From positions 31,373 to 95,372 of the forward strand of contig JABSOY010000015.1 of assembly GCA_013215385.1 (NCBI GenBank): a DNA stretch of 64,000 nucleotides. The letters run 5' to 3'. A program made the translations under genes and the position numbers. This DNA is from Colwellia sp. (GTDB lineage Bacteria; Pseudomonadota; Gammaproteobacteria; Enterobacterales; Alteromonadaceae). Positions 1-36,605 of this stretch are shown here, in pieces. Each line of letters begins with the position of its first letter. The stretch's first letter is position 1. The notes under the pieces were generated by a model. It ran no database searches. It saw only the letters and a program-made list of their open reading frames with translations, and was not told the origin of the DNA.

Positions 1-38
1 TTTTACTTAAGCGAAGTTGGTTGCGGGAGCCAGATTTG

Positions 39-115
<77 letters not shown>

Positions 116-33390: not shown

Positions 33391-34401
33391 TTAATTAACT
33401 GAAAGTTCACCACGTAAATTTTCTTGTAATAACCGGCAGACTTCCGCTTGAGGTAGGTTTTTACTGAGTAAATAATGAAGTTTAGTTAACGTCGCTTCCA
33501 AGGTCATATCGCCACCGCCAACAACACCGCATCTTCCTAGCGCGACACCGGTTGCGTAGCCTTCCATATTGACCGTGCCTTTTATGCATTGACTGCAATT
33601 AACGACCACAATACCTTGCTGGTATGCTTGAGTTAAACATGCAAGAAGTTTCTCGTCTTGAGGAGCATTACCAACACCATAACTGCGAATGATCAAGGCT
33701 TTTACTGGTTGCTTGATAATATTTTCAATCAATTCACTTGATATTCCAGGATATAAATGAACAACACCAATGGGTTGTGGCGTGATCTGTGCCAGTGTTA
33801 ATGCTTTACTCGTTGGCTTCGATAATTCGCCCTCAACTAACTTTATATTAATGCCTGCTTCTAAAAGTGGTGGCATATTGGGTGAGTCGAACGCATTGAA
33901 ACCGTCTGCATATGCTTTAATACAGCGATTGCCACGAAACAATTTATTATTAAAATATAAACTCACTTCACTAATAGGGTAATTGGCCGCAATATAAAGA
34001 GAATTTAACAGATTCACTTGGCCATCAGAGCGTAGTTGGCTTAATGGAATTTGCGAGCCAGTAACAATAATAGGCTTAGCTAAATTTTCAAACATAAATG
34101 AAAGTGCTGAGCTGGTGTAGGCCATGGTATCAGTACCATGTAATACCACAAAACCATCGTAATTATCATAATTCGCTTTTATGTCATCAGCGATACGTTG
34201 CCAATCTGAAGGCGCCATATTTGATGAATCAATCAAGGGCGAATATTCATTAATGGTAAAGTCAGGCATCTCTTCACGATGAAAGTCAGGGGTATTATTA
34301 ATGGACTCTGTTAAATGACCTTTTATCGGGACATAACCTTGGCCATTATCCTTCATACCAATAGTACCGCCAGTGTAAGCGATATAGATGCGTTTTTTCA
34401 T
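33391..34401 (-). CDS. ansA: cytoplasmic L-asparaginase (type I)
   Basis: A 336-residue enzyme without a signal peptide. The first catalytic threonine is in AYTGGTIGM near residue 12, and the second in VLHGTDTMAYTSSALSF near residue 90. VTGSQIPLSQLRSDG and VVNCSQCIKGTV agree with AnsA rather than the periplasmic AnsB. It converts asparagine to aspartate and ammonia. In E. coli ansA lies next to sppA, and here sppA is also the upstream neighbour on the same strand, but a 317-bp gap with tandem repeats separates them. Confidence 0.95.
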   Translation of the reverse strand: MKKRIYIAYTGGTIGMKDNGQGYVPIKGHLTESINNTPDFHREEMPDFTINEYSPLIDSSNMAPSDWQRIADDIKANYDNYDGFVVLHGTDTMAYTSSALSFMFENLAKPIIVTGSQIPLSQLRSDGQVNLLNSLYIAANYPISEVSLYFNNKLFRGNRCIKAYADGFNAFDSPNMPPLLEAGINIKLVEGELSKPTSKALTLAQITPQPIGVVHLYPGISSELIENIIKQPVKALIIRSYGVGNAPQDEKLLACLTQAYQQGIVVVNCSQCIKGTVNMEGYATGVALGRCGVVGGGDMTLEATLTKLHYLLSKNLPQAEVCRLLQENLRGELSVN

Positions 34402-34450
34402 TGTGTTTACCTTCGAATACTTACGTTGTAGAAATCTGTTGCATTAGCAG

Positions 34451-34682
34451 AACATAAATCATCACTGTTCATCCTGAACATCGCCATTCTTTCACATCCA
34501 TGTGATCATGGCATTGCATACATGGATGTATGTACTGATGATTTGTCAGGAACATAAATCATGACTGTTCATCCTGAACATCGCCATTCTTTCACATCCA
34601 TGTGATCATGACATTGCATACATGGATGTATGTACTGATGATTTGTCAGGAACATAAATCATGACTGTTCATCCTGAACATA
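34451..34682. repeat. 100-bp tandem repeat, 2.3 copies, between sppA and ansA
   Basis: Units 34451-34550 and 34551-34650 are each exactly 100 bp and differ at only two positions (offsets 13 and 61). A third partial unit continues to 34681 or 34682. Each unit contains 9-bp inverted arms ACATCCATG / CATGGATGT and a small GTTCA-TCC-TGAAC hairpin. The unit has no open frame and is not CRISPR-like, having no short repeat with variable spacer. It fills most of the 317-bp gap between ansA and sppA. It may be a tandemly amplified intergenic element. Confidence 0.95.
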
Positions 34683-34718
34683 AAACGGGGCTATCATATA
34701 CGCTTCGTTCATCGCTTA

Positions 34719-36605
34719 CTAATTAATTTCACAAGCCATACATAAAGAATAAACACCTTGTGGATCATTCAGCAGATTTAAATGAGAAAACTCAGCGTTA
34801 AGTTGCATAAATAACTTTTCTGTAGCACTTAAACTACTCGCTGAGGTTTCAGGAAGGAAACCTACCGCTTGACCAAATAGGCTTTGTAAAAATATATCTT
34901 TAGGTGATTTTTCTTTTTCAATCAATAAGGTATCAAAGTTTGTTAACTCGGCTAACTCTGCTGCTGCAGCAATTGCTGCATCTAAACCGCCAAGTTCATC
35001 AACTAAGCCTAACTCTTTCGCCTTCAAACCTGACCATACTCTGCCTTGAGCAATGATATCAACTTGTTCAATAGTCATGTTTCTGTTGTCAGCAACTAAG
35101 CTAATAAAGTCTTGATAGCCGCGATTAATATTCAATTGAAGTATTCTGGCCATGCCATCGCTAAGTGGACGAGTAACACCAAAACCGGCAATATCTGTGG
35201 TACCAACGCCATCAGTGTGAATGCCTAATTTGCTTAAGGTATTCTCAAAGGTCATAAAAAAGGCATAAATACCAATTGATCCTGTGATAGTCGCTGGAGA
35301 GGCGTATATTTTATCAGCAGGAGCCGAAATCCAATAACCACCAGAAGCGGCATACGTACCCATTGAAGCGATAACCGGTTTGCCCGCTTGTTTAATTAAT
35401 TCTATTTCTTGTCTAATTATTTCTGAAGCGTAAGCACTACCACCGGGGCTGTCGACACGTAATACCACAGCTTTAACATTTTTATTTAAACGAGCCTTAC
35501 GTAATAACTTAGCCGTACTATCACCACCAATAGTACCGGGTTTTTGGCTGCCATCTAAAATTGTTCCTTTAGCTACAATCACAGCGACTTTGTCTGAATT
35601 TGGGTTCACTAACGGAAATATTGGTTTGGTGGCGGTTAAGTAATTTTTGAAACTAATATGGTTATAGCTATCTCCCTTTTCACTACTACCAACTAACGCA
35701 ATCAACGACTCCTTCATATCTTGACGACTTTTCAGAGCATCTACCCATTGGTTGTCTAAAGCATATTGGGCAATATTACCGTCAGCTTCTTCAAGTTTAC
35801 TCACTAAAACGTCGGCATCTTCATCAAAATTATCTATGGTAAAGCCACGCGCATTAGCGACGTCATTTTTGTATTGCGACCACAAATCGTTCAGCCATAA
35901 CTTATTTGCTTCCTTTGCCGCTGCCGACATGTCATCGCGTATATAAGGTTCAACCGATGATTTATAAGTACCGACACGAAAAATATGTTGGCTAATAGAT
36001 AACTTTTCTAAAGCAGATTTGAAATAAAGTTGATAACGACCATAACCTTCTAGTAATAACCAACCCCGTGGGTTTAGCCAAACTTCATCAGCGGTACTGG
36101 CTAAGTAATATTGATCTTGTGAGTATTGGTCGCCAACAGCAATAACTTTTTTACCTGAGGCTTTGAACTCTTCTATCGCTTTCGCAATATCTTGAAGTTT
36201 GCTCAATCCAGTACGGTTGAGACCTTGTAGCTGTAGCACCATCATTTCAATACGACTGTCATTTTTGGCACGTTCAATCACATCAATAAGGTCACTCATC
36301 AATATTTCAGGTTTTTTATTCTTCTCTTCAAGTGCTTCAGTCATAAACGCATCTAAAGGGTCAATCGCATGTTTTTGTTCAACGACATCGCCAGACAAAT
36401 TTAATAATAGCGCGCTACTCTTTGGCACTATAATTTCGTTCTCGTCACTGCCAAGTGCGGTAATGAATAAAAGTAGTATGATAAAAAATACGGTATTAAC
36501 GATAATTTTTCTAAAAGTATTTAACAAGCTGAATAATTTCAACATAAATGTTTTAAATTTACTCTGTTTTACTTGTTCCCGAGGAAGTGATGTAGCTTCT
36601 GTCAT
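34719..36605 (-). CDS. sppA: signal peptide peptidase SppA, 67-kDa type
   Basis: A 628-residue membrane protease with an N-terminal anchor (about residues 33-51) and two tandem S49 domains. The catalytic lysine is Lys215 in GTYKSSVEPYIR of the first domain, and the serine is Ser421 in TYAASGGYW of the second, as in E. coli SppA. It degrades cleaved signal peptides in the inner membrane. The protein is complete and of family length. Next downstream is ansA, the same pair as in E. coli. Confidence 0.96.
   Translation of the reverse strand: MTEATSLPREQVKQSKFKTFMLKLFSLLNTFRKIIVNTVFFIILLLFITALGSDENEIIVPKSSALLLNLSGDVVEQKHAIDPLDAFMTEALEEKNKKPEILMSDLIDVIERAKNDSRIEMMVLQLQGLNRTGLSKLQDIAKAIEEFKASGKKVIAVGDQYSQDQYYLASTADEVWLNPRGWLLLEGYGRYQLYFKSALEKLSISQHIFRVGTYKSSVEPYIRDDMSAAAKEANKLWLNDLWSQYKNDVANARGFTIDNFDEDADVLVSKLEEADGNIAQYALDNQWVDALKSRQDMKESLIALVGSSEKGDSYNHISFKNYLTATKPIFPLVNPNSDKVAVIVAKGTILDGSQKPGTIGGDSTAKLLRKARLNKNVKAVVLRVDSPGGSAYASEIIRQEIELIKQAGKPVIASMGTYAASGGYWISAPADKIYASPATITGSIGIYAFFMTFENTLSKLGIHTDGVGTTDIAGFGVTRPLSDGMARILQLNINRGYQDFISLVADNRNMTIEQVDIIAQGRVWSGLKAKELGLVDELGGLDAAIAAAAELAELTNFDTLLIEKEKSPKDIFLQSLFGQAVGFLPETSASSLSATEKLFMQLNAEFSHLNLLNDPQGVYSLCMACEIN

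What the first reader, a model, noticed from the sequence alone, without database searches (positions are those of the whole stretch)
34451..34682. Exact 100-bp tandem repeat between sppA and ansA
Two units differ by only 2 of 100 bases and a third is partial. The unit contains 9-bp inverted arms (ACATCCATG / CATGGATGT) and a GTTCA-TCC-TGAAC hairpin. High identity points to recent expansion. The period is long for slippage repeats and the element is non-coding. It may be a mobile intergenic repeat amplified in tandem, or a processed RNA leader for ansA.
Basis: seen in the sequence. Interest (0 to 1): 0.55.

Follow-up and report, generated by a model that had tools for sequence, protein, structure and literature searches.

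The report
Hairpin repeats docked behind transcription terminators
The tandem repeat is one copy of a widespread family of roughly 50-base double-hairpin DNA repeats that sit immediately behind the stop signals of bacterial genes, insert into one another and multiply in tandem; what moves them, and whether their RNA-protein-binding-like loops do a job, is open.

Summary
In detail: 34450-34681, 2.3 units of 100 bp, 98% alike. The unit is composite. Colwellia sp. MB3u-41 carries plain 51-bp units at the same sppA-ansA site; each window unit is that unit plus an inverted 49-bp second unit. Another close relative has only an intact terminator there. The 51-bp unit folds on the minus strand into two GGA-loop hairpins whose stems covary. 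The family is dispersed: 48 places in this genome, 87 of 196 family genomes, 51 of 369 class genomes. In this genome 29 of 32 arrays start at a T-run, 26 of them behind a strong hairpin; in a second set 40 of 55 pass a strict terminator rule, against 11 of 1052 control sites. Inverted units sit in GG|A loops of other units. Best reading: a mobile, tandem-growing double-hairpin repeat that docks on terminators. No Y1 transposase or reverse transcriptase was found in this genome, so the mover is unknown. The loops resemble CsrA sites; binding is untested. My literature searches found no description. A leader role for ansA is unproven.

The parts
34450..34681 (-). whole array: 2.3 units of 100 bp; read on the minus strand it follows sppA and precedes ansA
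   Evidence: dispersed copies
34667..34679 (-). hairpin A, first copy behind sppA: GTTCAGGATGAAC, loop GGA
   Evidence: within the CM R1 match 34659-34682, 21.8 bits
34567..34579 (-). hairpin A, second copy
   Evidence: 13.9 bits, E 0.079
34467..34479 (-). hairpin A, third copy
   Evidence: 13.9 bits, E 0.079
34583..34612 (-). hairpin B, first copy: outer stem, GA/AAGA internal loop, inner hairpin CACATGGATGTG with GGA loop
   Evidence: within the CM R1 match 34581-34634, 48.4 bits (there the model's hairpin A is filled by the second unit's hairpin); for the family stems
34483..34512 (-). hairpin B, second copy (outer stem GCCAT/ATGGC)
   Evidence: within the CM R1 match 34481-34534, 50.2 bits
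34613..34662 (+). inverted 49-bp second unit between hairpins A and B; absent from the units of Colwellia sp. MB3u-41 at the same locus; GGA loops on the plus strand (CATACATGGATGTATG; TGTCAGGAACA); its exact ends are uncertain by a few bases
   Evidence: alignment A2
34513..34562 (+). second copy of the inverted 49-bp unit
34450..34466 (+). truncated third copy of the inverted unit
34680..34692 (-). remnant of the sppA terminator: 5' arm AGCCCCG followed directly by TTTTAT and the array; a close relative (L180) has a full hairpin and T-run here
   Evidence: no terminator found
34719..36605 (-). sppA, signal peptide peptidase
33391..34401 (-). ansA, type I asparaginase

Best explanation
A copy of a dispersed, non-coding, self-spreading repeat whose basic unit (about 51 nt) is a double hairpin: hairpin A (stem up to 5 pairs, GGA loop), a 5-6 nt linker, and hairpin B (outer stem, GA-type internal loop, inner GGA hairpin). 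New copies dock at the 3' edge of an intrinsic terminator's T-run, or inside or beside hairpins of resident units, and then grow by tandem duplication. In this window a 51-nt unit settled behind sppA, an inverted 49-nt unit of a sister subfamily inserted between its hairpins, and the 100-bp composite then duplicated. Shown: anatomy, covariation, dispersal, position behind terminators, nesting, presence/absence and copy-number differences between relatives. Inferred: the order of events, that copies move as DNA or RNA hairpins with the help of a trans-acting, unidentified activity, and that tandem growth is by slippage or recombination.
For: Dispersal. Double-hairpin fold: covariation score 0.383 against 0.149 (sd 0.011) shuffled and at most 0.093 slid; of 137 units chosen by loop and linker letters alone, 134 have at least 7 of 14 stem pairs. 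Docking: 29 of 32 arrays of this genome start at a T-run, 26 of these with upstream folding of -12.3 kcal/mol or better, upstream ORF in sense in 28 of 32; in a second set of 55 distinct first units (one from this genome) 40 pass T>=3 plus stem>=5 against 11 of 1052 control TATG sites. Nesting: 15 of 39 inverted units have flanks pairing over 5 or more bases, about 1.5% in shuffles. Same locus: window and L181 differ by the 49-nt unit, L180 has only the terminator. The lysS terminator is followed by 1 (G002) or 3 (G004) plain units, composites in G000 and G005, and at most a remnant in G001.
Against: No mover identified: no Y1_Tnp and no RVT_1 in this genome. No target-site duplication or inverted repeat evident. 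24 of 39 inverted units have flanks pairing over fewer than 5 bases, and related copies are not independent insertions. Three of the 32 arrays here do not start at a T-run, and three of the 29 that do lack a strong hairpin upstream, the window's own included; 15 of 55 fail the strict rule. No excess on one replication strand over genes: G018 45 of 53 arrays versus 135 of 179 genes, p=0.19; G001 11 of 18 versus 95 of 155, p=1 (the listing was slightly truncated). Conserved loops and linkers would also fit a selected host function.
Confidence: 0.6

Rival explanations
1. The arrays are selected RNA elements: read-through or downstream transcripts expose paired GGA-loop hairpins that bind CsrA/RsmA and act as a sponge or regulate mRNA 3' ends or leaders.
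For: The three unit subfamilies that I read here keep GGA in two hairpin loops while stems vary. On the window array the only Rfam match up to E=1 was CsrB, 12.2 bits; rsmX, 29.0 bits, overlaps the array start of L158. G.U mismatches exceed A.C on the GGA strand, 43 to 19, p=0.003, as expected if that single strand folds. RF01731 TwoAYGGAY, of like layout, was proposed to bind CsrA (PMC4333381, passages).
Against: These matches are far below gathering scores (71 and 56), and other weak matches on arrays are to unrelated families (STnc50, 37.4 of 55 bits, on L161). Arrays lie behind the terminator, so should be little transcribed with the upstream gene. Linkers are about as conserved as loops, though both served to pick the rows. 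This draft genome has only a partial CsrA match just over the cut-off (27.2 bits), unlike the 24 other genomes searched. Units are related, so the G.U test is not of independent events, and strand-biased mutation could mimic it; on the smaller set A1 it was 24 to 13, p=0.10. Inverted units put GGA on both strands of one array.
Confidence: 0.2
2. REP/REPIN elements moved by a RAYT (Y1 HUH transposase).
For: Short palindromic, intergenic, tandem and nested; no visible target duplication.
Against: Y1_Tnp absent from this genome and from unit-rich G005, G012 and G018; the hairpins of a unit run head-to-tail, not as an inverted doublet; no GTAG/GGAG at the stem foot in alignment A1 (that hallmark is recalled).
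Confidence: 0.07
3. A regulatory leader specific to ansA (riboswitch-like or processed RNA).
For: The array ends 48 bases upstream of the ansA start on its coding strand, and the sppA terminator is broken.
Against: The plain-unit model matched 1 of 80 ansA loci (L181; it does not pick up the second-subfamily units seen in L183, and the output was cut, so not all 80 gaps were read by eye). The family sits behind many other genes.
Confidence: 0.06
4. Plain local tandem duplication or an assembly artefact without a family.
For: 98% identity of the two units.
Against: Dispersed relatives.
Confidence: 0.02

Closest known systems
Double-hairpin elements (DHEs) of fungal mitochondria and GC clusters of yeast mtDNA
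   Same: tiny palindromic or double-hairpin elements held to be mobile, with merger and shuffling of clusters (PMC4478555, passages; the DHE paper of Paquin et al. seen only as an entry in its reference list)
   Different: organelles, other sequences; docking behind bacterial terminators and GGA loops were not in the passages I saw
REP/BIME/REPIN with RAYT transposases
   Same: bacterial, extragenic, palindromic, non-autonomous, tandem clusters (PMC3116915, passages)
   Different: no Y1 transposase found here, head-to-tail double hairpin rather than inverted doublet, placement at terminator T-runs
TwoAYGGAY RNA (RF01731), CsrB/RsmX (Rfam clan CL00106)
   Same: neighbouring hairpins with GGA loops; CsrA binding proposed for TwoAYGGAY (PMC4333381, passages)
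   Different: the arrays scanned do not reach the families' gathering scores; the four TwoAYGGAY copies inspected are not behind a T-run
Group IIC introns (recalled)
   Same: insertion just after intrinsic terminators
   Different: 51-nt unit without intron structure; no RVT_1 in this genome

Membership tests
REP/REPIN-RAYT | Y1 transposase gene in the genome | tested here: not met
   0 Y1_Tnp matches in G000; also 0 in G005, G012, G018
REP/REPIN-RAYT | GTAG/GGAG tetranucleotide at the foot of the palindrome (recalled) | tested here: not met
   columns beside the stems read TATG and GGTATG (A1)
REP/REPIN-RAYT | inverted doublet of palindromes | tested here: not met
   the basic 51-nt unit is a direct pair of GGA hairpins; only nested second units are inverted
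CsrA-binding RNAs (CL00106: CsrB, RsmX, TwoAYGGAY) | score above the Rfam gathering threshold | tested here: not met
   window: CsrB 12.2 of 71 bits; L158: rsmX 29.0 of 56; arrays of six loci and the window scanned
CsrA-binding RNAs (CL00106: CsrB, RsmX, TwoAYGGAY) | two or more hairpins with GGA in the loop | tested here: met
   (GGA letters served to select the rows of A1; in the window they are seen directly)
CsrA-binding RNAs (CL00106: CsrB, RsmX, TwoAYGGAY) | transcribed and bound by CsrA | not testable with these tools
   no expression or binding data
Mobile double-hairpin elements (DHE-like) | two neighbouring hairpins conserved as structure | tested here: met
Mobile double-hairpin elements (DHE-like) | presence/absence at orthologous sites | tested here: met
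   sppA-ansA, lysS
Mobile double-hairpin elements (DHE-like) | common descent with mitochondrial DHEs | not tested
   no sequence comparison made
Group IIC intron derivatives | insertion right behind an intrinsic terminator | tested here: met
Group IIC intron derivatives | reverse transcriptase available in the genome | tested here: not met
   0 RVT_1 in G000, G003, G004
MITE of a DDE transposon | terminal inverted repeats and target-site duplication | tested here: inconclusive
   no inverted repeats in 34300-34800 (length 12 or more) and no duplication evident against L181; not examined across all copies

The most novel reading that the evidence does not exclude
A Gammaproteobacteria-wide class of minimal mobile hairpins that uses terminator hairpins and its own GGA loops as docking sites, and whose tandem arrays, when read through, act as dispersed, copy-number-variable CsrA sponges.
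Probability: 0.15. Interest if true: 0.88.

Novelty: new variant of a known kind. Interest (0 to 1): 0.6.

Why it matters
It describes a repeat family, with no Rfam match over threshold in the arrays scanned, whose arrays start at a fixed base behind transcription terminators and which matches genomes of 31 families of the class. How so small a hairpin spreads without a recognised transposase, and why its loops look like CsrA sites, become testable questions; it also bears on where read-through RNA and assembly breaks arise.

Tried and rejected
Coding: many arrays have period 51, but periods of about 50, 58, 61 and 101 and the 100-bp composite break a frame, and changes follow stems; rejected. 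RAYT and reverse transcriptase as movers: not found here. Lagging-strand bias: looked striking in G018, but 75% of sampled genes there are co-oriented too; no excess. GGA-loop palindromes in a 400-kb sample of contig C37: 12 intergenic and 7 coding with a 3-base GGA loop, level with AAA (12 and 35), arrays of the family included; I did not pursue a role outside the family. Plasmid and phage collections: no match with one array each, plus a second array against plasmids; an exact pattern matched two viral contigs. TwoAYGGAY as the parent family: related layout, but no T-run before the four copies inspected. Literature: searches gave no description of this repeat in listings or passages; the library is open-access PMC only and listings were capped.

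Rows dropped and checks: one search took 87 windows by loop, linker and tail letters; 14 with fewer than 2 pairs in both hairpins were dropped (a weak selection on stems), then 17 of 73 by loop letters, leaving 56. One search repeated the choice without a stem rule: 137 units, 3 left out of the G.U count. One search examined 68 loci, 55 distinct first units, one from this genome; several failures follow a T-run by eye.

Full report
Observation. The repeat is real: 34450-34681, period 100, 2.3 copies, 98% alike, between sppA and ansA, both on the minus strand. It is the only strong match to the unit model in the window.

The unit is composite. ansA loci were fetched from named genomes (80 kept), and the nearest differ exactly here (its output was cut, so the nearest ones and part of the rest were read). 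Colwellia sp. MAG DT_21 (ansA 90% identical) has a plain terminator behind sppA. Colwellia sp. MB3u-41 (89%) has tandem 51-nt units and no terminator hairpin. MAG DT_19 (82%) has a terminator followed by the second kind of unit. C. hornerae (88%) has neither array nor T-run terminator by eye, only a short hairpin. In alignment A2 the window and MB3u-41 agree in plan except that each window unit carries an extra inverted stretch of about 49 nt between its two hairpins. The 100-bp period is therefore 51 + 49, and I infer that the composite was then duplicated. In the window the 5' arm of the old sppA terminator remains (34686-34692) but its 3' arm is gone, and a terminator scan finds nothing.

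Dispersal. DNA searches with three copies mark 48 places in this 5.10-Mb draft genome (merged at gaps over 600 bases; one search matches weaker than E 0.01 left out). The window copy matched 13 of 40 genomes, this one included. A covariance model of the 51-nt unit (R1) matched 87 of 196 genomes of the family at E<=0.01, 31 of 52 genera, and 51 of 369 genomes of the class at E<=1e-4, in 31 families; this genome is counted in both. Copy counts per genome there are lower bounds because only 29 or 15 candidates were scored; weak matches in distant genomes were not all inspected. With 150 candidates scored, G001 has 43 and G018 110 matches.

Structure. The plain unit has hairpin A (GGA loop), a linker close to GGTATG, and hairpin B (outer stem, internal loop of G(A/G) against AAGA, inner hairpin with GGA). 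On 56 units, 92.7% of pair cells are standard, 9 of 15 pairs show changes on both sides in 126 cells, and the covariation score is 0.383 against 0.149 (sd 0.011) for shuffles and at most 0.093 for slid partners. These rows were picked by loop and linker letters and, weakly, by stems; picked by letters alone, 134 of 137 units still have at least 7 of 14 pairs. Two further subfamilies, read on their GGA strand, have the same plan with other stems and linkers (my reading). G.U exceeds A.C on the GGA strand, 43 to 19 (p=0.003; on A1 24 to 13, p=0.10), which hints that this single strand folds; units are related, so the p-value is generous.

Docking. Of 32 arrays in this genome, 29 begin at a T-run; in 26 of the 29 the 41 bases upstream fold at -12.3 kcal/mol or better (the exceptions are the window, L157 and L176), and in 28 of 32 the upstream ORF points towards the array. 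The terminators printed there differ in sequence. In a second set, 68 loci from congeners to other families of the class, 40 of 55 distinct first units follow T>=3 and a stem of at least 5 pairs, against 11 of 1052 other TATG sites. Of the 10 class-level loci (nine other families) 4 pass the strict rule and 8 follow a T-run by eye. One viral contig (L379) shows the same layout ahead of a 1524-aa ORF that I take for a tail tape-measure protein (no family search); another (L378) carries a copy without an evident terminator.

Nesting. For 39 inverted units found by their core sequence (36 here, 3 in relatives; two rows are the window's own second unit), the flanks pair with one another over 5 or more bases in 15, where shuffles give about 1.5%; there the break falls between GG (once GA) and ATG of a host GGA loop. 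In one array (L163) an empty and a filled copy of the same hairpin lie side by side. A few others sit at CAGGATG|AACGG.

Turnover. Behind lysS a near-identical terminator is followed by a composite in G000 and G005, one plain unit in G002, three in G004 and at most a remnant in G001; in G018 another terminator behind lysS carries a nine-fold array of a further unit with ACGGAA and ATGGAT loops.

Mechanism. These facts describe an element that gains copies at hairpins and then multiplies locally. A ssDNA mechanism like that of IS200/IS605 (recalled) would suit hairpin targets without target duplication, but Y1_Tnp is absent here and in three other unit-rich genomes, RVT_1 is absent here, and there is no strand bias beyond that of genes. 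The mover is unknown. The rival, an RNA that binds CsrA, rests on the loops and on weak Rfam matches among which unrelated families also occur; the CsrA consensus itself is recalled. CsrA is strongly present in 24 of 25 genomes searched, but in the window's own draft genome only a partial match of 27.2 bits was found.

Known or new. Nothing in Rfam reached its gathering score on the window array or on the arrays of the loci scanned. TwoAYGGAY, a family of unknown function with two GGA-loop hairpins, has been suggested to bind CsrA (PMC4333381, passages; a table entry in PMC2864571; a table entry in PMC11701678); it scores over threshold in 9 of 25 genomes, this one included, but as a separate repeat. 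REPINs (PMC3116915, passages) and mitochondrial GC clusters and double-hairpin elements (PMC4478555, passages) are the nearest kinds in behaviour; PMC2267715, a survey of stem-loop families, mentions none of the four marine genera I looked for (passages). I file it as a new variant of short mobile hairpin repeats. Searches for a description in print.

Noticed in passing
L412 (G000:C14:49600-50900): In the window's own draft genome the only CsrA match is partial (27.2 bits, cut-off 27), in a 65-aa ORF, while the 24 other genomes searched have matches of 60 bits or more. A draft gap is possible.
   Followed up: partly
L081:1501-1611 (G000:C1:194009-194119); L079, L080: TwoAYGGAY (RF01731) scores over threshold in 9 of 25 genomes; the copies in L079-L081 share flanks and look like parts of a larger repeat with CATTAAA / TTTAATGCAG ends.
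   Followed up: partly
L160, L021, L389: A different dispersed hairpin repeat (CGTCATCCTGAA...TTCAGGAT); second-subfamily units sit in its loop in at least two copies seen.
   Followed up: no
L393 (G018 behind lysS): Nine-fold tandem array of a further unit with ACGGAA and ATGGAT loops directly behind a terminator.
   Followed up: partly
G000:C12:181760, G000:C30:26458, G000:C2:268166 and some G003/G005 contig ends: Contigs end in or within about 100 bases of these arrays, so they probably break assemblies.
   Followed up: no
L378, L379: Two IMG/VR viral contigs carry the unit, one of them right behind a terminator and ahead of a 1524-aa ORF.
   Followed up: partly
window 18-59: Perfect 21-bp tandem duplication.
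   Followed up: no
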